From: Gracilariopsis chorda
Lineage: Eukaryota > Rhodophyta > Florideophyceae > Gracilariales > Gracilariaceae
Length of the DNA stretch: 64,000 bases
Assembly (NCBI GenBank): GCA_003194525.1
Contig: NBIV01000009.1
Location: 526,250-590,249, forward strand
Direction: 5' to 3'
Positions within the stretch are counted from its first letter, which is position 1. Each line of letters opens with the position of its first letter. The translations under genes were made by a program, and so were the position numbers. Positions 12,187 to 60,777 of the stretch are shown in pieces. The notes beneath the pieces were generated by a model. It worked only from the letters and a program-made list of their open reading frames with translations. It was not told the DNA's origin and made no database searches.

Positions 12187-12316
12187 ATTAATCAGCAAGC
12201 CCTCCACCCAGCTTTAAAGGGTAACTAATAAGGGATTAAACTGTGACGTGTTCTCGAGTTCAAAAAGATGTTAACATTTTGTCGAACATATACCTTTCTT
12301 ACGACGAGATTCACTG

Positions 12317-12324
12317 TATATAAA
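12317..12324 (+). promoter_or_regulatory. Candidate TATA box for the AUDH-like gene
   Basis: TATATAAA lies 140 bp upstream of the start codon at 12465 and about 25-30 bp before the 19-bp tandem array. This would put the array at the start of the transcript. Confidence 0.45.
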
Positions 12325-12346
12325 TGCTAGAAGTCTTCCTCGGATT

Positions 12347-12403
12347 GCAACAGGTGTTGAAGTCCGCAACAGGTGTTGAAGTCCGCAACAGGTGTTGAAG
12401 TCC
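12347..12403. repeat. Tandem repeat, 19-bp unit x3, in the putative 5' leader
   Basis: Three perfect copies of GCAACAGGTGTTGAAGTCC at 12347, 12366 and 12385, followed by a broken fourth (GCAAAAG). The array lies between the TATA-like element and the start codon of the AUDH-like gene. Confidence 0.95.
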
Positions 12404-12464
12404 GCAAAAGCGTTACAGGTCTACCGCACTTCCCCATCTTCACCGCAGAAAGCGTATCCAGAAG

Positions 12465-14696
12465 ATGCATATTTGGGGCGTTTCACCAACTTTCGGCAGG
12501 GTCGACAAGACCTTGACCCCTGAGTTCGAAGAGAACATCATTCAAGATCATCGCGAGGATGGATATTGGGTTGACAGTTTTGATGTGAATGGAAGCGGGT
12601 TACCAGACATCATCGGATATGGTCTAAACTCCGGTGAACTGACTTGGTTCGAGAACCCGAACGCATCTCACCTCGCACCTAAAGAATGGACAGCAAGGAA
12701 AATTGCACAAGTAGATGAACCGGTTGGTATGTATCATGCTCCGATAGCTGGTACTGCTTACGAAGATATTGTCATATGTTCTCAGTACGGAGGTACCATG
12801 GACACCATTGACACGGAAGGCGGTAAGCTACATTGGTACCAGAACCCTCTTGGAAATGGTGGTACCGTTGATGACGTCTGGGTGAAGCGGTATATCGGCA
12901 AAGCCGCCGGTATGCATCGAGTAGTAGTTGGGCGCTTCACACAGACTGAAGAGCTCGAGGTAATGGGGTGGCCCATCTGTGGCCAGCCCGGCAACACCCA
13001 CTCGGCTATCAAAGTGAAGCTTTGGCAGAAGCCTGAAGACATACTCAATGCTTCAATGTGGAATGAGACGCTGATTACAGAGACATACTTTCACGTTGTA
13101 CATGATTTGGCGATGCGAAAATACCGCGCTACGACAGGGGACCTTCGCGACTCTTTGATTGTTGCCTCCGAAGAAGGCCTAACTTGGGTATACTTCGATG
13201 AAGGATGGAACTTTAAGCACATTGCCGACGGCGTACCTTCCTCGACGGAGTGTGGATATTGGGGCTGTCAAAATGTCGATGTGGGGCAAATCGGAGAAGA
13301 TCCTTTCGCTTTCATCGCTACATCTGGGCCATTCCATGGCAATGTGGCCATGGTTTACATCAAGCAACGGGGTGGCCTAGGCTCAATCGAGGGAGCCGAG
13401 TGGAAGGAATATACTCTTGATGTATACGGGAACAATGGACTGCCGATACGCGACGGAAACGGAGACAAACATCACGTTCTGTGCGCAGACATGGATGGCG
13501 ACGGAGATGACGAAATACTCTTCTCACTCAGAGACCAAGGAGTGGTGTACTTCAAGATCGACGACGCAACATGTGGAGAATTTCTACAATATCACACTTC
13601 GACAGCATCAGCAGCAAGAGCCACCGTTGGGGATTTTAACGGTGATGGGTCTTTAGACTACGCTACCATGGGGTATGGGGTCAAGGATTATTACGAGGCG
13701 GAGGACGTACAGTTGAATGTGTACTACAACAGTTTCGTGACGCCTTCGAAGAAACGCCTATTCAACACCCAAGAGAATGTTGCTGGCACCATTCAGCTTT
13801 CATGTACCAAGGACTCGGAAGTTCAAGTGGATATCTTTCCGGACCGCAAAGCTTTATACCAATACTTGATAACGATTTACCATTTTAGGCACACCATCGC
13901 GTACGTACCAGCTCTTAGCTACCTGTCCAAGGACTACATCAAGCGTGGTACCATGATTAAGGTCATTTCCGGATATGTGCAAGTGACGCATCAGGCGAAC
14001 ACTACCCCGGAGACTATCGGTAACACCTGCACACCACAAGGGTCATTGAATTTGACAATCCTCAGTGATGATGAGAAGATTCTGGCTGTTCAGGAAACTG
14101 TGCTAATGATCTTTCAACCAGACTTCGATCCGACCACAGAGGACTTCCCCATCGTCAGGAACGCGGGGCAGGTGAACGAATCGATCGAGTTCCAGGAGGT
14201 TTCTGGCTTGAAGGAATTTGCATTCAAACCCTACAGTGATTCCATGAGCTTCTGTAACATGACAGGTTTCACCATTAGGAAGAGGCGTTTCAAATTGTGT
14301 CATATTCAGTTCTGGTTAGCAGACCGAGGAGTCGACTGTGGTATCCATGACCACTCCGACCTGAACGCTCAGAAAACATTCTGCGAAATTCATGCCTGCA
14401 TGATCAATGGCACTGGCAGTGGAGCGATGTATCGCAGTCGCGAGCCGTACGTAATTCCGATTGGACAGATTGACCGTGAGAAAATGAAGAAGATTGTTGT
14501 TCCTTCCGGGTACGAGCATGGACCCCTCTGGAACTGGGATGAGAACGGTCGTCCCCTCCGAAGAGAAGATGGGAGTGTGGTGTATCGTGCCCATGCATGG
14601 ATAGCGGGAGATGGTGATCCCTTGAATAAGCATCAGTCGATGGACTTCTGGACAGCCTTCGAACTGAACCCAATCATTGTTGATTCTAGTTTGTAA
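12465..14696 (+). CDS. Aldos-2-ulose dehydratase-like protein (beta-propeller plus cupin)
   Basis: 743 residues. The first ~420 form repeated FG-GAP/VCBS-type propeller blades with acidic metal-binding loops, such as DVNGSGLPD (about 40), DMDGDGDDE (about 342) and DFNGDGSLD (about 390). The last ~320 look like a double cupin. The histidine cluster GIHDH (H628, H630), the stretch FCEIHACMINGTG (E641, H643) and EHGPLW (H685) strongly resemble fungal aldos-2-ulose dehydratase (AUDH, pyranosone dehydratase). AUDH converts 1,5-anhydrofructose to microthecin and glucosone to cortalcerone. The fungal enzyme is about 900 residues with a C-terminal lectin-like domain, which is absent here. There is no obvious signal peptide. 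Red algae make 1,5-anhydrofructose with alpha-1,4-glucan lyase, so a function in that pathway is plausible. Substrate and product are inferred. Confidence 0.8.
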   Translation: MHIWGVSPTFGRVDKTLTPEFEENIIQDHREDGYWVDSFDVNGSGLPDIIGYGLNSGELTWFENPNASHLAPKEWTARKIAQVDEPVGMYHAPIAGTAYEDIVICSQYGGTMDTIDTEGGKLHWYQNPLGNGGTVDDVWVKRYIGKAAGMHRVVVGRFTQTEELEVMGWPICGQPGNTHSAIKVKLWQKPEDILNASMWNETLITETYFHVVHDLAMRKYRATTGDLRDSLIVASEEGLTWVYFDEGWNFKHIADGVPSSTECGYWGCQNVDVGQIGEDPFAFIATSGPFHGNVAMVYIKQRGGLGSIEGAEWKEYTLDVYGNNGLPIRDGNGDKHHVLCADMDGDGDDEILFSLRDQGVVYFKIDDATCGEFLQYHTSTASAARATVGDFNGDGSLDYATMGYGVKDYYEAEDVQLNVYYNSFVTPSKKRLFNTQENVAGTIQLSCTKDSEVQVDIFPDRKALYQYLITIYHFRHTIAYVPALSYLSKDYIKRGTMIKVISGYVQVTHQANTTPETIGNTCTPQGSLNLTILSDDEKILAVQETVLMIFQPDFDPTTEDFPIVRNAGQVNESIEFQEVSGLKEFAFKPYSDSMSFCNMTGFTIRKRRFKLCHIQFWLADRGVDCGIHDHSDLNAQKTFCEIHACMINGTGSGAMYRSREPYVIPIGQIDREKMKKIVVPSGYEHGPLWNWDENGRPLRREDGSVVYRAHAWIAGDGDPLNKHQSMDFWTAFELNPIIVDSSL

Positions 14697-32425: not shown

Positions 32426-35400
32426 TCAATGTGAATCTCGCAAAGTTCTCGCACTAACATTCCTGTCCTGATTATCTATGAATGTTTCCTGCACTGAACT
32501 CGCTGAGCCGTTGACTATTGACAGAGCTGGAGTAGATGGTGTAGAATGTATTGAACTAGCCCCTGCCACACCAGCATTCAGACTGCTTCCGTCTCCCATT
32601 CCATCACACCAAGACTTCACAGCGGCGATTGCCCGATCGAGTGCCTTTGCAGTGAATTCATGTCGGTGTTCGCCTCTAGAATACTCCAGCGCTTCCCGAA
32701 TAGGCATCCATTGCCGCCTTCTATTGCGCCCCACGGTAGTACCAAGCTCTTTGGCAAGAAGAACAACTGTTTGGAAAGCTGATTGCTTTTGTCCTTTGTC
32801 CACTTCAATCCATCCGAGGTTGGCTAATATTTCGTAACTTGAAACTCCCGCCTTCTCTCTTGCAATTCGAATCGTGGCGTCGATCTGAGTCTCGCCCTCG
32901 TTCTGACCACCCTTCGGGACAGCCCATGGATCGTCTGGCTCACGAGCAACCATCAATACCTGAATAGAATCAAAATCTCCCTCGCCTTCAACAAATCGTA
33001 TTGGTACCACACCGACAGCGACCTTGTCAACCATCTTAGTGTTACCCTTGATATTGATGACATATCGAGGTCGAGATCTGCTCCGCTTGGTTGGTTTCTT
33101 TGCTTCAACATGACTTTCTGAAGTAGGAAGGGCGCTTCCATTTGTGTCAGCCGGAAACTTGAGCAGTCCCTCCGAAGCTTCGTTATCCATGAAACTCGGG
33201 TCTTCAGGGCTAGGAACAAAGTCAAATTGTTCTTGGCTTCTCTCATCGGCATCACTGTCACTGCTACGGTTCTCAGCTTTCTTAGACTTTGATAATTCCT
33301 TCGCAGAAGGAGCAATAGAAACGGAGACGGGGGGTGACTTGGGCGCCGGAAAGCCTTTGTAGTAATGACCGTCTGACGCCATTCGCCACACCCACCTACC
33401 ATCATCGATAAGCTCGAATGCCTTGGATAAGCGCTTTCGCAGGTAAGCATCCCTGATAGGAACGATTACCTCAACGCGCCCCGTGAGATTCCTTGTTCGC
33501 CAGTCCGCTGAACCAATGAAATATTTACCCTCTCCACCGGCATGGAAGTAGTATACTCTGCGATGCTGCAGAAGCTGTCCGACCCAAGAGTAAACATTGA
33601 TGTTCTCACTCAAGCCCTTGATGCCTGGACGAATACGACAAGCAGCCCGGACAATAAGATCAATACGAACACCCGCTTGCGAAGCGTCATATAGTTCCTT
33701 AGTAATCTTCTTATCTGAGAGCCCATTCATCTGACAGGCAATTCTAGCCGGCTTCCCTTCCCTAGCGTTCTTGGCCTCCTGACGAATGAGGTGAATAAAC
33801 GTCTCGAGCATGTTAACAGGCGAAACTAGTAAACATCGATACTCGGTATTCTCAGAATACCCCGTAAGATGGTTGAAGACGTCCAGAACATCCGTACAGA
33901 TCTCCTTGTCTGATGTGAAGAGACAGTAGTCAGTGTATAGCTTAGCCGTCTTCGGGTTAAAGTTGCCCGTAGAGATATTGCAGTACGAGCACAAACTGCC
34001 ATCGCTTTCCTCTCGAACCACAAGCATAATCTTGCTGTGGACCTTAAGACCCATCATTCCATATGTGACGTTACACCCAGCAACCTGAAGCGCTCTAGCA
34101 TACTCCGAATTTTGAATCTCGTCGAAGGAGGCCTTAAGCTCTATAACCACACTGACTTCCTTACCATTCTTGGCAGCCCGAATAAGCGCGGCAACAATGG
34201 GAGAATTTCCACCGCCTCTGTACAAGACCGATTTAATAGATCGTACACGCGGGTCTCTCGCAGCGGCATGCAAGAAAAGTACGGCGGAATTTTCAAAGTT
34301 GTCTCTGGGATACTCGACCAAGATATCTTCTTTACGAATGATACCGAAGATAGCACCAGGGTCTGCAATGAGACGATTTTGCAAGCCTTTAAAGGGGGAA
34401 GGAACTCCAGGGTCTCTCATGACTTGTCTGAGCCAAGGCAAAGGGACAAAAGCAAGTGACATGCAGCTGGAAAGATCAAGGTACGGAGTGTCAACAACAT
34501 AGACATCGAGATCATCCAAACAAAGCTTGTTTACCAAAAGGTCGATCATTTGTTGAGGGGCATCGGTCATGACTTCAAGTCTGGTAGCCGGAGCCTGTCG
34601 TCGTCGATGGACCTCATCGACGATAAAGTCAAACAGGTCAGTCATGTCACTCAGGCTTTCATCCTCGATGGAAATCTTTGTATTCCTAGTGACTCGGAAC
34701 GGATAGGCGCCCATAACGATCATGGAATGACAGATGAGATTGAGGTTTGCAAGGCAGACATCCTCCGACGTGACAAATTTCAAACCTGATTCATCGATGG
34801 GAATGAGCCTGTTGTTAGACGGACACCGGAAAAGCACGGTTCTTCTGGCACCGTTTTTCGGGTTGAACAAACGCACGTAGATGTAGATGTCATGACTCTG
34901 GATTAACGGAAAAGGGTGCGTGGCATCGATGACGGTAGGCGTGAGCGCCGGACGAAGATTTTCCTTGAAGTAAGCCGTCATCTTTTCTTTCTGACTATCA
35001 TCAAGTTTGTCGCGACTTACAATCTCGATTCCGCGTTCGGCCAAGCGAGGTAAGAGGTCGGAGGTAAGACATTTGCTTTGTTTCTCCATAATAGTTCGAA
35101 GAGCGACGGTAAGGTCTTCCTCATACTTGGTCTTTGGTCTGACGTGTCGTCGAAGATTGATGGTGGCAGTTTTGAGGTCGTTAAGGTCGAGTTTGGGGAT
35201 TGAGCCCAGACGCTTTGCAAAGTGTTCATCCAGGGAGGAGGAGACGATGCAGAGGAATTTGAAGCGGTCGAGAAGTGGAACGGTAGGATCCATGGCCATA
35301 GAAAGGACCCGACACATCATGCTGAGCTCAGCAAACTCCTTTGAGAAGACAATATCGCTTTCCGCAAGCTCCTTTGACGGGAGCTTATCAAGCTCGGCGT

Positions 35401-35851
35401 GCGGAGTGTAGTGAACTCGTTCATCGAAGGGACAGATGATGCTTTGATAGGTATTCCCGTCTGGAGTTGTGACGATGGCCTTGGCGTTAAGGTCCATAGG
35501 CTGGGACGTAGAAGAGGGCAAGTCAGGGACGGGGAGATGAAGTAGAGGGTTCTTGAGATGGTTTTCATTGTTGAGACTGAGGGAGGAAAGAGAGGGAGGA
35601 CGCGGCATGTCTGGTTGGAGAGAAGGGTGTGAGGCGGCTAAGGCTGCGAAGACGGACTCTGCATCATTGCCCTTTGCACGCACGGCGAGTAGGGATGCGG
35701 AGTCAGTGCGGTTGTTTTCAGAATGTGTTTGTTTAGCACCATTCCATTGTTCAAAATTTGTGACGGGAGGTACGGTGACCGACGAGACGGATAGCGGACT
35801 GGCGGTAAATGCATTGTGCTGTTTACCGTTGTAATCAGAAGCTTTCTGCAT
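32426..35851 (-). CDS. ppk1: Polyphosphate kinase (PPK1 type) fused to a Nudix-like domain
   Basis: 1141 residues. After a serine-rich N-terminus (1-165), residues about 166-830 form a complete PPK1: N-terminal domain (PLLDRFKFLCIVSSSLDEHF, 192-211), head domain, and two phospholipase-D-like catalytic domains. The LKVHSKI motif gives H605, equivalent to the autophosphorylated histidine of bacterial PPK1. QHRRVYYF gives H763, and SADWRTRN follows. PPK1 makes polyphosphate reversibly from ATP. An acidic linker (840-925) leads to a Nudix-fold region (about 940-1075). Its box G981-x5-E987-x7-RIAREKAGV has isoleucine and lysine at two of the glutamate positions of REUxEExGU, so hydrolysis may be lost. 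Usual PPK1 length is about 700. PPK1 is patchy in eukaryotes but known in red algae and Dictyostelium. Confidence 0.92.
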   Translation of the reverse strand: MQKASDYNGKQHNAFTASPLSVSSVTVPPVTNFEQWNGAKQTHSENNRTDSASLLAVRAKGNDAESVFAALAASHPSLQPDMPRPPSLSSLSLNNENHLKNPLLHLPVPDLPSSTSQPMDLNAKAIVTTPDGNTYQSIICPFDERVHYTPHAELDKLPSKELAESDIVFSKEFAELSMMCRVLSMAMDPTVPLLDRFKFLCIVSSSLDEHFAKRLGSIPKLDLNDLKTATINLRRHVRPKTKYEEDLTVALRTIMEKQSKCLTSDLLPRLAERGIEIVSRDKLDDSQKEKMTAYFKENLRPALTPTVIDATHPFPLIQSHDIYIYVRLFNPKNGARRTVLFRCPSNNRLIPIDESGLKFVTSEDVCLANLNLICHSMIVMGAYPFRVTRNTKISIEDESLSDMTDLFDFIVDEVHRRRQAPATRLEVMTDAPQQMIDLLVNKLCLDDLDVYVVDTPYLDLSSCMSLAFVPLPWLRQVMRDPGVPSPFKGLQNRLIADPGAIFGIIRKEDILVEYPRDNFENSAVLFLHAAARDPRVRSIKSVLYRGGGNSPIVAALIRAAKNGKEVSVVIELKASFDEIQNSEYARALQVAGCNVTYGMMGLKVHSKIMLVVREESDGSLCSYCNISTGNFNPKTAKLYTDYCLFTSDKEICTDVLDVFNHLTGYSENTEYRCLLVSPVNMLETFIHLIRQEAKNAREGKPARIACQMNGLSDKKITKELYDASQAGVRIDLIVRAACRIRPGIKGLSENINVYSWVGQLLQHRRVYYFHAGGEGKYFIGSADWRTRNLTGRVEVIVPIRDAYLRKRLSKAFELIDDGRWVWRMASDGHYYKGFPAPKSPPVSVSIAPSAKELSKSKKAENRSSDSDADERSQEQFDFVPSPEDPSFMDNEASEGLLKFPADTNGSALPTSESHVEAKKPTKRSRSRPRYVINIKGNTKMVDKVAVGVVPIRFVEGEGDFDSIQVLMVAREPDDPWAVPKGGQNEGETQIDATIRIAREKAGVSSYEILANLGWIEVDKGQKQSAFQTVVLLAKELGTTVGRNRRRQWMPIREALEYSRGEHRHEFTAKALDRAIAAVKSWCDGMGDGSSLNAGVAGASSIHSTPSTPALSIVNGSASSVQETFIDNQDRNVSARTLRDSH

Positions 35852-53319: not shown

Positions 53320-53583
53320 TAGAAGACCAGCGAAGTGTGTTTTGTGATCTCGGTTTACCGGATTAGCTACCTGGTTTCCGAATTATTCGTTGAAGTTGAA
53401 TTTGTGTTGTGACCAACCGTGTTGTTGAGGATCGCCGATTGCTCGGGTGTGTCTCCCACAAGTGGTTGCGTGGTACCTCTTAGGAGTGGATGTTCGCTCA
53501 TTGAAGGTTTGCTTCTTTTTGTTGCTTGTTTGTGTGTTGTTTGGATTGTTTCCTGTTTTGTTTCAGTTTCAGTGTCTGCCACG

Positions 53584-55677
53584 ATGGGTTCTGGAAATGG
53601 ATCCCGTGGTTCGGGCCAGCCCAAGTCGCGACAAGTCGGTGCTGACTTGCCCCCGCGCTCGCGGTCGGTCCCAGAACGTTCGGATGTTGATAACCGGAAA
53701 TCCGGAAGCAGGAAGCTATCGACCAAGTCGTCGCAACCGCCAGTTGCTGGTTCATCGGATGCCCCGCTTAGGAGATTCGTACCCGCCGCTGCGGAGAAGG
53801 ACGCACTCTTTGTCGAGTTGGAGGCTCAGGTGCAGAACCTTCAAGCCCAGACCTCGGTGCTTGAAAGCTCTCACGCCGCCCTCGTCAATGAGGTTGATGC
53901 ACTCCGTATGAGGATTGATGCCGATCTCGTCGGAGGTGTATCTGAAGATCTACGTACTTTACGGACTGATGTTAATTCCCTTTTGGAGGTTTTGAGGGGT
54001 TACCCAGATATGGTGAAGGATGTTGACTCGAAGTTTCATCGGGTTCTGTCCCGTCTTGAGACGTTGGAAAATACCATCAGAGGTGATGACAATGTCGCAG
54101 ACACACCAGCGGTGGTTTCTCATCGATATGGTGACCGTGCTCGCACGAAGAACCGCCCCCGAAAACGGAATGACAACGACTATGACTCGGATTCGTCCCG
54201 GTCATCGGTGAATTCCAACCGCTCTGCGGAATCCGCTTCGTCAGACTCGTCTGCTGACGGTGATCGTCGCGCTCGTTCATCGCACTCGCGTCGTTCAGCA
54301 GCCACCCATGGTGAGATTCGAGCCCGACAGAAGGGAAGAAAGCACTCCGGTTTGAAGGAACTGAAGCCTACTAACCCTTTGTACAGGAAGCTTTTATCAT
54401 ATCGGTATTACCGTTTGGAAGATTCCTCTTTGGATCGTACACCCCGTGGAACTGGGAAAGTAAAAGACGGCATCAAGAGGATGGCTTTGTCGTTTCGTAA
54501 CCAGAATTTCACTGGAGAGGATCCGATTCTCGTTCTGGATTTTCTTTCACGCTTTGTAGCGGAGGCAGATATCCTCGGAATGAGTGAAGGACAGGCTTAC
54601 GTCGCCTTACCGTATTTCCTACGTGGAATCGCTGAAGATCAATTCAACTCTGTAAGAGGTTCGTCTCGCGCCTCTGAAGGAGGGGTCACCTGTTGGCCCG
54701 AAGCCGTTCAGTATTTACTCCGCTCGTACGCGACAGGAACCGCAATACAGGAAGCTATCCTGGCCCTACGCGATACTAAGCAACGCCCAAAGGAAACGGA
54801 GACCGAATACTCAGTCAGACTGAACAAGGCCTTCCACCGATGTGGCAATGTTTATTCCGCTAGCGAGCGTTGTACAATGTTTGTCGACGGATTGGATCCG
54901 GCTATTCGCACCCTTGTTGCCCAACGTCAGGAAGACAGGAGGAAAGTTACCTACTTAGAATTGGTACAGTACGCGAAGGCGGAAGGAGATGCCCTACGTG
55001 CCCGCTCCGGAAGCCGAGTCAGATCTCAGGCCCTACACATGGAGGCCGCCCCGTCATCAGTTTCACTGTTGCCCCAGGAATACTCTCGACGTGAGGTTGA
55101 CAATGTTTACTTTACTCAGCATGATCTGGTTTCCATACCCACAACGGAGCTCCCGTCCACCACGGAACCTTCGGTGGAACTGGATAGTCAAGTGCTGTAT
55201 GCGGATCGCCAACGCGTTCGCTGCCCACAAGTTCCGTATGCTAACGGTAATCGTTACCAGAGACCTGGTTGGGTGGATACGCGCGCGTCAGCGGTGAAGT
55301 TTCAGGACAACCGAAATATCGGGAGACATCAGACGTTGATCTGCTACCTTTGTTACGACCATGGACACACGGCCCCACAGTGTATCATGACTCTGAGGGA
55401 CATGCCCAAAGTGGTTGTTACCTTTGAAGCCCTGACCCCGGAAGAACAGGCATCAGTGCCTGTCACCGCATACTTGCGTGCGAAAACCGAGTTTCCTCGT
55501 AAGTTTACACCAGTTCAATCTGAAGCGGTACCCAGCACTGGTTCTTCCTTGGCCACCGCTTCTGCGAATCAAGCCGCTTCGGCGGATGTTTCTGTTTCTC
55601 GGCAACCGGCTCCGCAAACCGCTTCATTGCCGCGGAATACTGTTCCCGTGAAAACGGATGCCGCTCAGGAAAACTGA
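53584..55677 (+). CDS. gag: Gag polyprotein of the chromovirus
   Basis: 697 residues from the methionine at 53584 (MGSGNGSRGSGQ). The open frame starts at 53419, but its first 55 residues are hydrophobic leader-like translation of the untranslated region. Contents: a basic serine-rich N-terminus, a coiled coil (about 75-150), a charged low-complexity stretch, a retrotransposon capsid-like domain (about 300-470: ILVLDFLSRFVAEADILGM; VQYLLRSYATGTAIQEAI; KETETEYSVRLNKAFHRC), and near the end a CCHC zinc knuckle CYLCYDHGHTAPQC with exact C-x2-C-x4-H-x4-C spacing for RNA binding. Gag forms the particle that packages the element RNA. The stop at 55675 ends the frame; pol lies in the -1 frame. Confidence 0.9.
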   Translation: MGSGNGSRGSGQPKSRQVGADLPPRSRSVPERSDVDNRKSGSRKLSTKSSQPPVAGSSDAPLRRFVPAAAEKDALFVELEAQVQNLQAQTSVLESSHAALVNEVDALRMRIDADLVGGVSEDLRTLRTDVNSLLEVLRGYPDMVKDVDSKFHRVLSRLETLENTIRGDDNVADTPAVVSHRYGDRARTKNRPRKRNDNDYDSDSSRSSVNSNRSAESASSDSSADGDRRARSSHSRRSAATHGEIRARQKGRKHSGLKELKPTNPLYRKLLSYRYYRLEDSSLDRTPRGTGKVKDGIKRMALSFRNQNFTGEDPILVLDFLSRFVAEADILGMSEGQAYVALPYFLRGIAEDQFNSVRGSSRASEGGVTCWPEAVQYLLRSYATGTAIQEAILALRDTKQRPKETETEYSVRLNKAFHRCGNVYSASERCTMFVDGLDPAIRTLVAQRQEDRRKVTYLELVQYAKAEGDALRARSGSRVRSQALHMEAAPSSVSLLPQEYSRREVDNVYFTQHDLVSIPTTELPSTTEPSVELDSQVLYADRQRVRCPQVPYANGNRYQRPGWVDTRASAVKFQDNRNIGRHQTLICYLCYDHGHTAPQCIMTLRDMPKVVVTFEALTPEEQASVPVTAYLRAKTEFPRKFTPVQSEAVPSTGSSLATASANQAASADVSVSRQPAPQTASLPRNTVPVKTDAAQEN

Positions 55678-55744
55678 GTGGGGGAGTCTCTTTTAGAGAG
55701 GCGCCTGAGTCGAGGTCATCGGCGCCCGAGGCGTCAAAGCCTCG
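55669..55744 (+). promoter_or_regulatory. Candidate -1 ribosomal frameshift signal between gag and pol
   Basis: The last gag codons read GAA AAC TGA. The pol frame is -1 relative to gag and stays open across this point, without a stop from upstream of the gag end into pol. The A run GGAAAAC could let ribosomes slip back one base. Downstream, CGAGGC-GTCAAA-GCCTCG (55727-55744) is a perfect hairpin, and a weaker one (TCTCT...AGAGA) lies nearer. The site is not a classical heptamer and the spacing is long, so this is tentative. Confidence 0.4.
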
Positions 55745-55772
55745 CTCCCCGGTCAAGATCCTTTCAAGGCAG

Positions 55773-58700
55773 TTGTTGACCACCACAGACGTGGACTCGG
55801 CCCACCTCGGTGAGTTACGTCGCCCGTGGATACGGTGTAAGAATCATCGGTCACCGGATAGAGTCATGGTTATGGCCAAGCGAAACTACAAAGTTTTCGC
55901 TGACTTTGGCCTTTCCGCCCAGTATATGGTGCGTCATCTGTCTATTCTGGATACAGGTGCCGGCCCCAATTTCATTGTCGAATCTCTCTTACCGCCTGAA
56001 GTGCGTTCTCGTGTTAGACAAGGACCCGTCATGGACGTTGCTGATGCCAATAACAACCCGTTGAAGACGGCTGGTACGGTTTCTCTGAAGATCAGGATTG
56101 GTAAATGTTCGATGCAGCTCGAATTCATCGTCTGTAAGACGCTAGCGGCCCCCGTTATCTTGGGATGTGACTTCTGCGATCGTTTCGTAGAGTCAATTCG
56201 TCCGCGTGCGCGAGAAGTTGAACTAGAAGATGGTTCCATCATTCCGATAGTTCGTCGTTCATTACGGCGTGCCTCATCCAAGTTGGTTCCTCTTCCGGCC
56301 CCCTTGCAGGATTCGTCACCTCCAAAGGAGTCGCCCAAGCTACGTGTCGCACGGCCAATCTCCATACCGCCCGAATCACAGGCGTGGGTATCGGTTACTG
56401 CCGCTCCAAGAGGATTGCGTGTTGTTCAACCGCTCACCTCGCTGTACGAGAAGTATCAATTGGCCCTGGCTAACGGTGTCGTTCAGGTTTCAAATGAACA
56501 CCCCTTTCAGGTATTGATAGCCAACTTTGGCAAGAAGCCGCAGTATCTGGCGAAGAACCAAGTAGTTGGTACTGTACTTCCGCATCCAACGGCTTTAATC
56601 CCTACAAAGGTGTGCGCAGCCGATGTACTCGGATTAGTTCAAGAACCAGATGATACGCCTCATGCTAAGGAGGGGGAGGGTTCCCACTCTTCTGTGGAGT
56701 CGCTCAGCACGAAAGATTCGGAAAAGAAGGCCGTTCCTACGAGTTACGATAAGTTGGACCCTGTGAAGGAGTTAGAAGATCTGGATCTCGGACATGTACC
56801 GGATTCACACCGCGAGAAGTTGCGAAAAATGTTGCGAGAGTTCACCTCAATGTGGGATGGATCCCTCGGGGAGGTGTCAGCCACGGAACACCGGATTGAC
56901 TTGTTACCGGACACCACGCCGATTACTCAACACCCCTATAGGGCAGGCCCCAAAGCAAGGGAGGAAGAACAGTTCCATGTGGATAAAGTGCTCCGCGAAG
57001 GCGTGATAGAACCGGCTCAATCACCGTGGGCATCCCCAGTGGTACTGGCTCCGAAACCCGATGGGACTTGGCGTTTTTGCATCGACTACCGTCGCCTTAA
57101 TGCCGCCACTGTGAAAGACGTGTACCCCATACCGCGAATGGACGAGTATATTGACTCTCTCGGTGAGGCGACTGTCTTCTCCACATTGGATGCGAACTGG
57201 GGATACTGGCAAGTACCAGTAAGACCGGAAGACCGTGATAAGACCGCTTTCGTCTTTCATTCAGGTTTGTACCGCTTTAAGCGTATGCCGTTTGGGTTAG
57301 CAAACGCTCCCGCTACTTTCCAGCGTGCGTTAGATATCCTCTTGGCCCGCTTCAAATGGCGATCGTGCCTCGTCTACCTTGACGATATCATAGTCTTCTC
57401 CAACAACTTGGATGATCATTTAGAACACGTTCGTCAAATCATGACCACGTTACGTGATGCTGGAGTAACCCTCAAGCTGAGGAAGTGCGAATTCTTTACC
57501 AAATCGGTTAAGTACCTGGGCCACGTTATTCGCCCTGGGCGCTTGCTGATACAGGAAGCTCGGGTCAAATCTCTCAAAGAGGCCATGCACCCGAGAACTC
57601 AAACAGAACTCCGCTCCTTTCTAGGGTTATGTAACGTGTATAGACGGTTCATCCCAAGCTTCGCAAAGATTGCGGGACCCCTTAATGATCTTCTTCGAAA
57701 AGGACAACCGCCAAAACTGGGCCCCCTTAACCCTGCACAGGTGGAAGCTTTCAACTCTCTGAAGGAGGCTGTCACCTCTGCACCGATATTATCGTTGCCT
57801 AAGGACGGGTTACCTTATACCGTGGATACGGATGCGAGTGATTACCAAATTGGTTGTGCGTTATTCCAAACGACTCCCGATGGGGAACGGAAACCAATCG
57901 GTTTTTGGTCCAGAACACTCAACGTCCACGAACGGAACTACTCAGTCCCTGAAAAGGAATGCCTCGCCATGGTATGGGCTCTGCAAACACTCAGACCATA
58001 TCTGATGGGCACACGCTTCACCGTTAATACGGACCACTCCGCTTTGCGTTGGTTAATGTCCGTCACGGAACCATCGGGCCGCTTGATGCGTTGGAGACTG
58101 CGCCTAGCTGAGTTCGATTATGAAGTCGCCTATAAAAAGGGTTCCCTTAATACACAGGCTGATGCTTTGTCTCGTTTGGGAACGGAAGCGGAAACCCTTT
58201 CCGTCGATGACGATGATATCCCTTGTTTCCTTCTTGAAGAGAAGTTACGTTATGATCTGGTTTCAGATGATATTGCTGATGATCTGCTCGTCGCTGACGG
58301 TGACGAACCGGATACCGGATCCTTCGCACCGATCACTCCCGAAGAGATGATCCGCGAACAGTATGGAGACCCGTTTTGTACGAAGATACGCGCCCAACTC
58401 AATGGAGGTGCTAACATTCCTTTCGGAGTCGACTCACAAGGTTACTTGGTAAGGACTGTGTGTTCTTCGTCACAAATAGTGGTTCCCCATTCCCTCCAGT
58501 CGAGAGTATTACATCTCTCGCACTTCTCGAGGTTAGCTGCACACCCTGGTGGAAGGAGGCTATACACGACGTTACGTCGGCATTTCTACTGGCCTGCACT
58601 TGCGTTGGATTGCTATGCGATTGTTCGGTCTTGTACCCATTGTGCTCGTGAGCAAGTCAAGCTACGCCGCTATGCGAAGAAATTGACCCTGTTCCCGGCA

Positions 58701-59102
58701 CGGGCTCCGCTAGAATTTGTCGCCATCGATATACTCGGTGAGGTCCTTCACACTGCACGTGGTAACAAGTTTCTACTTGTAATAACGGATAGGTTCTCGA
58801 AGCTCGTCCGGACTGTACCGTTGAAGAAGATTACCGCACGATCCGTGGCAGAAGCATTTGTCCGTCACTGGGTTCTCGTCTACGGTCCACCGGTTAATCT
58901 CTTATCCGATAACGGACCGCAGTTCGCCGCGCGTTTCTTCCAAGATGTTTGTAGAATACTTGACATCAGAAATCTGTTTACAACGACATACCATCCCCAA
59001 GCAAATGGGCAGGTGGAACGGTTTAACCGAACGTTGTTGTCCGCTTTACGTGCGTATGCAGTTGAGCACCCCGTACATGGGATTTGTACACAGACACCGT
59101 GA
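55773..59102 (+). CDS. pol: Pol polyprotein: protease, RT, RNase H, integrase (tail frameshifted)
   Basis: 1109 codons from the first methionine; the frame is open further upstream into gag, so Pol is probably made as a Gag-Pol fusion. Domains: retropepsin-like protease with D60-T-G (LDTGAGPNFI); reverse transcriptase with RFCIDYRRLN and the YLDD active site at 535-538; RNase H (DTDASDYQIG near 686, then KECLAMVWAL and NTDHSALRW); integrase with H/C zinc motif (HFSRLAAHPG...CTHC) and a DDE triad at D986, D1046 and E1082. Exactly 35 residues separate the last two (DX35E). The stop at 59100 follows a one-base loss near 59077. The natural reading continues in the next frame (VTYAYNTQVHRVTGLSPFEL), so the integrase C-terminus is cut off. 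Confidence 0.93.
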   Translation: MLTTTDVDSAHLGELRRPWIRCKNHRSPDRVMVMAKRNYKVFADFGLSAQYMVRHLSILDTGAGPNFIVESLLPPEVRSRVRQGPVMDVADANNNPLKTAGTVSLKIRIGKCSMQLEFIVCKTLAAPVILGCDFCDRFVESIRPRAREVELEDGSIIPIVRRSLRRASSKLVPLPAPLQDSSPPKESPKLRVARPISIPPESQAWVSVTAAPRGLRVVQPLTSLYEKYQLALANGVVQVSNEHPFQVLIANFGKKPQYLAKNQVVGTVLPHPTALIPTKVCAADVLGLVQEPDDTPHAKEGEGSHSSVESLSTKDSEKKAVPTSYDKLDPVKELEDLDLGHVPDSHREKLRKMLREFTSMWDGSLGEVSATEHRIDLLPDTTPITQHPYRAGPKAREEEQFHVDKVLREGVIEPAQSPWASPVVLAPKPDGTWRFCIDYRRLNAATVKDVYPIPRMDEYIDSLGEATVFSTLDANWGYWQVPVRPEDRDKTAFVFHSGLYRFKRMPFGLANAPATFQRALDILLARFKWRSCLVYLDDIIVFSNNLDDHLEHVRQIMTTLRDAGVTLKLRKCEFFTKSVKYLGHVIRPGRLLIQEARVKSLKEAMHPRTQTELRSFLGLCNVYRRFIPSFAKIAGPLNDLLRKGQPPKLGPLNPAQVEAFNSLKEAVTSAPILSLPKDGLPYTVDTDASDYQIGCALFQTTPDGERKPIGFWSRTLNVHERNYSVPEKECLAMVWALQTLRPYLMGTRFTVNTDHSALRWLMSVTEPSGRLMRWRLRLAEFDYEVAYKKGSLNTQADALSRLGTEAETLSVDDDDIPCFLLEEKLRYDLVSDDIADDLLVADGDEPDTGSFAPITPEEMIREQYGDPFCTKIRAQLNGGANIPFGVDSQGYLVRTVCSSSQIVVPHSLQSRVLHLSHFSRLAAHPGGRRLYTTLRRHFYWPALALDCYAIVRSCTHCAREQVKLRRYAKKLTLFPARAPLEFVAIDILGEVLHTARGNKFLLVITDRFSKLVRTVPLKKITARSVAEAFVRHWVLVYGPPVNLLSDNGPQFAARFFQDVCRILDIRNLFTTTYHPQANGQVERFNRTLLSALRAYAVEHPVHGICTQTP

Positions 59103-60777
59103 CGTACGCGTACAATACGCAGGTACACAGAGTAACTGGCTTATCACCCTTCGAGCTGGTGCTCTCACGTCCCCCACCGCCTGTGGCGATTGAGTCGCAG
59201 CCAACGCAGGACAAGTACCCGTCAACGGTTGATCATTACCTTCGATGGAAGAGTTGGCTCACACGGATGGTCCCGGTCGCGAAATCGTCAATGACGCGAG
59301 CGCAACGAGCGTATCAACGAAATTTCGATGCCCGAGTCCGTCGGCCCTTCCCTCACTGGAAGCAGGACAGTTCGTCTTCGTCAGGAAGGAATACTACAAC
59401 CCTGAGAAGGAGAAACGCCACAAACTCTCGCCCATTGCGGATGGCCCCTACAAGGTCATTTCAGTGAGCCGAGACACAGTTGTACTGGAAGTTGGCGATT
59501 CTCATGAACGGTTCAGCCGCGATCGCGTCGTACAAGCCCCTAACCCGCATTCGGAAGTTGTACTGGCTCCCGGAATCCCGGACGCTCGACTGATGCCCAC
59601 TGCAGAAGCAGGTTCCTCGCACCGCGCAATTAGCGTTGCGCGCCCGTCGAGAGGTCTCTCGGACAGACCGATTCTGTCGCAGCAATCTTCGGAATCTCCG
59701 GTACACGTTCGCTCGCGCTTTACGCCGCGTGTCGAACCACCGTCAGACGTTGTTTCAGCCCCCGTCGCCGCCCGGCTAAGGAGGGGGAGGAGGCCAGTCA
59801 ATCCCGCTTTTCAGCGAAGTCTACACCGCCGTCGCGAGCTCCTGTAAACTCTCGTGAGGCACGGCAACCTGAAGTAGCGACACCGCACGCTACCGCCGCA
59901 CGCGTGGAACTACCTCAGCAGACTGGAAGGACCGGCCCCGCCGATGGAAAGCCTCGTGAGCACGCTACGCAGTCACCTCCGTTAAGGGAGCACACTGCCA
60001 ACCGCACTCGCGAGACGCTGCAAAGAAAACCGGACACAGACACTGTGCTGTCATCTCCCGTTGGAGGAATGAACACAGGAAGCCTGGCTCGGAACCCGGA
60101 CGCTCCGTTGGCCCCCTACTCACCGGCTCCCGTCGAGAAAGTTGTAAGGACCCCCGCCGCTGCAGCGCAGACTAAGCAAGTCACGGTAGATCCGGTGTAT
60201 GGAACCCTGATGTACAGGACGCTTCGACACCCTCGCAAGTGGATGCGCAAGGTCCCACAAATGGGTTATCTGAAATTGAATCGTCTCTCATTAGAGGAAG
60301 TCTCTCTGGTACTGTACCAAGCAGCTCAGATCATCTGAATTCAGCTCACAGTATTGAAAGACTGGTTGCGTCAACCCCAGCAGGGATGGCCCACACCGCA
60401 TATGCAGGAGAGCCTGATCGCCACGTGTTGCGAGATGTGCACCACACACCCATTCACGGTGACACAGCTCTCCAGTACAGGACGACGACAGCCAACCATT
60501 TGGATACGCCTCGCCAACCGGCACCCGCCGTGGCACATGAACCGCCTCCCCGTCACCAACCGTTGGAAATGGGACGAGGAAGCCTTCGCAGACTAGCGGT
60601 ACGATCTCCCGAATCCGATGGGGTAGTGTCAACCTCAACGAGGAATTCAGTCGACCCTCATCAGGAAATCACATGGTCAAACGCCGCAAGCGAACGCCAC
60701 GAACCGTTGGACGGACTCATCACCGGCTTTGCCGTCGGAAACAGCCGTTGTACGGACTGCAACCGGAACCGCGAAGC
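59103..60777 (+). pseudogene. 3' part of pol (integrase C-terminus and linker), frameshifted
   Basis: The continuation of integrase is readable in successive frames. 59103-59350 gives the GLSPFELVLSRPPPP motif common to Gypsy integrases. Then 59350-59600 in another frame gives the GPF/Y-like module (GQFVFVRKEYY...KLSPIADGPYKVISV...VVLEVGD). A long proline/serine/arginine-rich linker then runs through two more frame changes to about 60780. The shifts fall near 59077, 59350, 59840 and 60300. The linker of about 390 codons before the chromodomain is unusually long. Confidence 0.8.

What the first reader, a model, noticed from the sequence alone, without database searches (positions are those of the whole stretch)
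12465..14696. Aldos-2-ulose dehydratase-like gene in what looks like a red alga
The propeller plus cupin layout and the H-x-H / EIHACMINGTG / EHGPLW motifs point to AUDH, an enzyme characterised in fungi that turns 1,5-anhydrofructose into microthecin. Red algae are known for alpha-1,4-glucan lyase, which makes 1,5-anhydrofructose from starch-like glucans. A downstream dehydratase would complete an anhydrofructose pathway there. The lectin-like C-terminal domain of the fungal enzyme is absent.
Basis: partly seen in the sequence, partly recalled or inferred. Interest (0 to 1): 0.75.

Follow-up and report, generated by a model that had tools for sequence, protein, structure and literature searches.

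The report
Likely red-alga gene for microthecin
A seaweed gene looks like the enzyme that turns a starch-derived sugar into the antibacterial pyrone microthecin, a product reported from this algal genus in 1996 for which we found no gene named.

Summary

The host is most likely Gracilariopsis chorda: three intact alpha-1,4-glucan lyase ORFs in the genome are 100% identical to NCBI proteins of that name. So one genome encodes starch -> 1,5-anhydrofructose and, very likely, -> microthecin. A 1996 paper (title only) reports microthecin in Gracilariopsis lemaneiformis; the listings seen named no gene.

Activity, metals, compartment and role are inferred; the rival glucosone route could not be tested.

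The parts
12465..14696 (+). AUDH-family gene, 743 aa, uninterrupted ORF
12516..13736 (+). FG-GAP/VCBS beta-propeller domain (about residues 18-424), with conserved H151, H213, H291, H336
13737..14693 (+). bicupin region (about residues 425-743); H628, H630, E641, H643, E684, H685
12315..12326 (+). TATA-like stretch about 140 bases before the ATG (read by eye, not tested)

Best explanation
The gene encodes a bifunctional aldos-2-ulose (1,5-anhydrofructose) dehydratase/isomerase of Gracilariopsis chorda. Alpha-1,4-glucan lyase cleaves glucose units from starch by elimination to give 1,5-anhydrofructose. A metal site in the propeller, held by conserved histidines, then polarises the C2 ketone and removes water to give ascopyrone M; a metal site in the cupin isomerises that to microthecin, an antibacterial pyrone. 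Shown here: homology, fold, conserved residues, one uninterrupted gene, three intact lyase ORFs in the same genome. Inferred: metal identity, both reactions, their order, and a defence role. The two-site zinc mechanism is recalled from Claesson et al. 2012, which is not held and was not read.
Against: No activity or expression data. Identity to the characterised fungal enzyme is only 27-30%. The lyases have an N-terminal extension before the crystallised chain (61 residues in L005 counted from the start of NCBI protein P0147), plausibly a plastid transit peptide, while the AUDH aligns to the fungal enzyme from residue 13-20 on, so the enzymes may lie in different compartments. The model's domain placement differs from the crystal (whole-length rmsd 17 A). 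K335, next to conserved H336, is I in P0001, P0002 and P0003. The AUDH and lyase genes lie on different contigs.
Confidence: 0.85

Rival explanations
1. The enzyme is a dehydratase but its natural substrate is another 2-keto sugar, chiefly glucosone made by a pyranose 2-oxidase, giving cortalcerone instead of microthecin.
For: A reference title in PMC11650716 describes synthesis of cortalcerone from glucose with pyranose 2-oxidase and a fungal aldos-2-ulose dehydratase; that fungal AUDH takes both substrates is recalled.
Against: Three intact glucan lyase ORFs would supply 1,5-anhydrofructose in the same genome, and microthecin is the product reported from a congener (title). Presence of a pyranose oxidase was not tested: the genome search did not answer in 14 attempts.
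Confidence: 0.08
2. Only the dehydratase half works: the cupin has lost isomerase activity, so the product is ascopyrone M (or P by a separate tautomerase).
For: The model is less certain in the cupin half: ten-residue blocks from residue 441 have pLDDT 64-94, the last three residues 41.
Against: H628, H630, E641, E684 and H685 are kept in 11 of 11 fused proteins aligned.
Confidence: 0.05
3. A non-enzymatic FG-GAP/cupin protein, for example a sugar-binding or adhesion protein.
For: Integrin and other FG-GAP or WD-type propellers appear lower in the fold lists.
Against: The match to AUDH covers both domains and stands far above all others; the candidate metal-site residues are kept.
Confidence: 0.02

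Closest known systems
Aldos-2-ulose dehydratase/isomerase of Phanerochaete chrysosporium (PDB 4a7k, 4a7y, 4a7z; organism from a reference title in PMC8023676)
   Same: Propeller followed by bicupin, conserved candidate metal-site residues, about 30% identity over 668-673 aligned residues
   Different: 743 instead of 900 aa; no C-terminal lectin domain; host is a photosynthetic red alga with starch
Fused homologues of Rotaria (P0005, P0006) and Aspergillus (P0021)
   Same: Same two-module layout; P0021 (772 aa) also ends soon after the cupin
   Different: 30-37% identity; rotifers and fungi join as one branch (98/91) apart from the algal branch (100/100) in the propeller tree
Propeller-only proteins of about 410 aa; those with organism names are from Flammeovirga, Streptomyces, Persicobacter and Flavivirga (P0027, P0030, P0031, P0038), and UniRef already names two of these after AUDH
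   Same: 36-47% identity over the propeller and the same four histidines
   Different: No fused cupin; in Streptomyces and Paraburkholderia loci a separate neighbouring gene encodes it
Alpha-1,4-glucan lyase isozyme 1 (PDB 2x2h)
   Same: Encoded in the same genome: L005 matches the chain with two differences in the part of the alignment printed
   Different: Upstream enzyme of the pathway, not a relative of the window gene

Membership tests
AUDH (aldos-2-ulose dehydratase/isomerase) | Sequence homology to a characterised AUDH over both modules | tested here: met
   E 3.3e-94, residues 18-425 and 593-734
AUDH (aldos-2-ulose dehydratase/isomerase) | AUDH propeller and AUDH cupin Pfam domains above curated cut-offs, in that order | tested here: met
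   PF22301 154 bits (cut-off 27), PF18637 150.7 bits (cut-off 25)
AUDH (aldos-2-ulose dehydratase/isomerase) | Propeller plus bicupin fold of the solved enzyme | tested here: met
AUDH (aldos-2-ulose dehydratase/isomerase) | Conserved candidate metal-site residues in propeller and cupin | tested here: met
   (conservation only); that they bind the two active-site zinc ions is recalled and inferred, no coordinates were inspected
AUDH (aldos-2-ulose dehydratase/isomerase) | Dehydration of 1,5-anhydrofructose or glucosone and isomerisation to microthecin or cortalcerone | not testable with these tools
   needs an assay
Four-domain AUDH of the P. chrysosporium type (a subtype) | C-terminal lectin-like domain | tested here: not met
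   the gene ends where chain residue 737-738 of 900 aligns. Aspergillus P0021 (772 aa) ends similarly, so this is not taken as defining the family
Alpha-1,4-glucan lyase (for L003, L004, L005) | GH31 domain and close homology to the solved algal lyase | tested here: met
AUDH cupin (for the bacterial stand-alone proteins) | PF18637 above curated cut-off | tested here: not met
   11 and 12.8 bits against 25 for the 2 proteins scanned; it is the only family listed at E up to 10
AUDH cupin (for the bacterial stand-alone proteins) | Profile and fold homology to the AUDH bicupin | tested here: met

The most novel reading that the evidence does not exclude
The algal gene is one end of a wider, undescribed pyrone chemistry. 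Some bacteria carry the AUDH modules as two proteins, coded side by side with a UDP-GlcNAc 2-epimerase-family enzyme and a flavin-binding oxidase. That epimerase class works by eliminating UDP to an enolic sugar (recalled), so it could supply 1,5-anhydrofructose-type substrates from UDP-sugars without any glucan lyase, and the cluster would make an oxidised pyrone. In the alga, a lyase in the plastid with starch and AUDH outside it would make microthecin formation a damage-triggered defence.
Probability: 0.3. Interest if true: 0.8.

Novelty: new member of a known kind. Interest (0 to 1): 0.62.

Why it matters
[quoted passage not shown] In the listings seen (two searches were capped at 30 of 85 and 25 of 2,073 papers; open-licence PMC papers only) and in passages of nine papers, no algal dehydratase gene was named. 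This candidate makes the anhydrofructose pathway of red algae testable with one recombinant protein. It also widens AUDH: fused forms occur in a red alga, rotifers and fungi, and related modules lie as neighbouring genes in Streptomyces and Paraburkholderia, pointing to an unexamined cluster.

Tried and rejected
(b) Intron or truncated gene model: in-frame stop upstream, no internal stop, alignment over both modules. (c) Clustering of AUDH with the lyases: none; AUDH is on C9, lyases on C123 (two) and C340.

Led nowhere: NCBIfam gave no family. The pyranose 2-oxidase test did not complete. Claesson 2012, Rozeboom 2013 and Okuyama 2016 are not held; the DOI tried was my own wrong recollection. 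A search for anhydrofructose with biosynthetic gene cluster listed one unrelated soil paper; one for hydroxyglucal, UDP-GlcNAc 2-epimerase and berberine bridge listed one kasugamycin paper, not opened.

Results against the split-AUDH reading: of 5 fetched loci with a close propeller gene (L010, L011, L012, L018, L022), 3 have a cupin neighbour and 2 (L012 Actinomycetales MAG, L022 Persicobacter) have none in the 4.6-8 kb held on each side; L013-L017 hold only distant propeller relatives and no cupin. Three alphaproteobacterial loci (L019-L021) have the cupin with no propeller found, beside sugar-type genes. In the plasmid collection 3 records have the propeller and 28 the cupin, 25 of these listed; 2 Streptomyces records have both. 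The bicupin stays under the Pfam cut-off. In the propeller tree the fused proteins are not one group: three label changes are needed, because propeller-length rows P0004 and P0012 lie inside the algal branch (perhaps truncated models), and the joint branch has support 80/80 only.

Rows dropped: the conservation count and the structure alignment used the window plus 45 of 50 hits (P0046-P0050, at 24-25% identity, left out); the tree also left out P0043-P0045 as truncated and added L010 and L011; A1 used 10 of 50 hits; A6 used 47 of 96 cupin hits.

Full report
What is there. The ORF at 12465-14696 (+) is 743 codons long, begins at the first ATG after an in-frame stop 23 codons upstream and has no internal stop. 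The genome that holds the window (91.3 Mb, 1081 contigs) gives one match, 100%, at C9:538714-540942. GC is 0.49 and GC3 0.54. Of 16 other window ORFs of 200 aa or more, 10 were scanned and 9 had a Pfam family, such as synaptobrevin/longin, IF-2B, G-patch and SAM.

What it is by sequence. The only PDB sequence matched at E up to 10 is aldos-2-ulose dehydratase 4a7k, E 3.3e-94, in two stretches, 18-425 and 593-734. Pfam gives AUDH_beta_propeller at 154 bits and AUDH_Cupin at 150.7 bits, cut-offs 27 and 25. NCBIfam has nothing.

Candidate metal sites. Over 46 sequences (window plus 45 of the 50 hits) H151 and H291 are kept in 46 of 46, H336 in 44 of 44 and H213 in 43 of 44 rows without a gap; in the fused proteins H628, H630, E641, E684 and H685 are kept in 11 of 11 and H643 in 10 of 11. 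In the HMMER alignment these histidines face histidines of 4a7k. That the fungal enzyme uses one zinc in each site, with dehydration in the propeller and isomerisation in the cupin, is recalled from Claesson et al. 2012; only the entry titles (metal-depleted form; complex with ascopyrone M) were seen.

The organism and the pathway. A search for the GH31 domain found 8 matching places. L003, L004 and L005 hold uninterrupted ORFs of 1113, 1112 and 1098 aa whose only PDB match at E up to 1e-50 is alpha-1,4-glucan lyase isozyme 1. They are 100% identical over 1094, 1041 and 1088 residues to NCBI proteins named Alpha-glucosidase 2 of Gracilariopsis chorda; the UniRef clusters of two of them hold two members within Gracilariopsis. 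The window is therefore most likely from G. chorda. L007 is an interrupted copy (76% to L005 over 388 residues; 3 stops inside the match). L002 and L006 hold GH31 domains not examined further, L009 is a GH36 melibiase, and L008 was not scanned. [quoted passage not shown]

What was known. PMC2974679 says that in fungi and red algae anhydrofructose is metabolised to microthecin, ascopyrones and echinosporin, citing among others Broberg 1999 (passages). PMC12441222 says ascopyrone and microthecin have antibacterial activity (passages). [quoted passage not shown] the paper itself was not seen). The Gp. lemaneiformis genome paper has no occurrence of dehydratase, and its one anhydro- hit is anhydrogalactose (passages). 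Listings for microthecin, aldos-2-ulose dehydratase, glucan lyase or anhydrofructose, ascopyrone, and anhydrofructose + red alga + dehydratase showed no paper naming an algal gene, but one search listed 30 of 85, not all were opened, and the library is open-licence PMC only.

Relatives and history. Fused propeller-cupin proteins with names come from Rotaria, Aspergillus, Fusarium and Paramyrothecium; most other hits are propeller-only proteins of about 410 aa, 36-47% identical to the alga, of which four carry bacterial names. In a maximum-likelihood tree of 45 propellers, fungi and rotifers join (98/91), the branch with the alga, P0001-P0004 and P0012 has 100/100, and the two join with weak support (80/80) apart from the 35 other rows. 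The label 'fused' needs three changes on the tree; one fusion with two losses (or two truncated models) is possible but not shown.

How it most likely works. Shown: gene, fold, conserved residues, lyases in the same genome. Inferred: starch -> 1,5-anhydrofructose (lyase) -> ascopyrone M (propeller metal) -> microthecin (cupin metal). L005 carries 61 residues (from the start of P0147) before the crystallised chain, as a plastid transit peptide would give; the AUDH has no comparable extension. If starch and AUDH lie outside the plastid, as red-algal starch does (general knowledge), pyrone formation might depend on transport of anhydrofructose or on tissue damage. A wound-activated chemical defence is described for two Gracilaria species (abstract in the listing, PMC3302091), with oxylipins.

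Verdict. As a family member this is a new member of a known kind; its value is that it gives a reported algal activity a candidate gene, and that it leads to a two-gene bacterial form in a biosynthetic-looking cluster.

Noticed in passing
L010:2340-7753; L011:6033-12444; L018:3806-10673: Bacterial cluster: UDP-GlcNAc 2-epimerase-family gene, stand-alone AUDH-type bicupin, AUDH-type propeller, with a flavin-binding oxidase gene (berberine-bridge domains in L010 and L011, FAD-binding by annotation in L018) and, in L011 and L018, an acyltransferase.
   Followed up: partly
L019:7980-8675, L020:7986-8681, L021:7992-8681: Alphaproteobacterial members of the same bicupin family with no propeller gene found in the stretch held, beside oxidoreductase, sugar isomerase-like and transporter genes: perhaps catabolism of a keto-sugar.
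   Followed up: partly
L007:1363-2517: Interrupted further glucan lyase copy, 76% identical to L005 over 388 residues, three stops in the matched stretch.
   Followed up: no
window 12348-12407: A unit of about 20 bases (CAACAGGTGTTGAAGTCCG) stands three times in tandem just upstream of the AUDH gene (read by eye).
   Followed up: no
window 13467-13469: Residue 335 is K (AAA) in the window but I in P0001, P0002 and P0003, next to conserved H336; a polymorphism or a base error in the assembly.
   Followed up: no
window 32426-35851 (-): Polyphosphate kinase (all four PP_kinase Pfam domains) with a C-terminal NUDIX domain.
   Followed up: no
window 53419-59847 (+): Long ORFs that read like a Ty3-type LTR retrotransposon, judged by eye only.
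   Followed up: no
P0152-P0157: Glucan-lyase-like proteins at 34-39% identity to L005 from unnamed sources, on contigs of up to 2 Mb; possibly bacterial.
   Followed up: no
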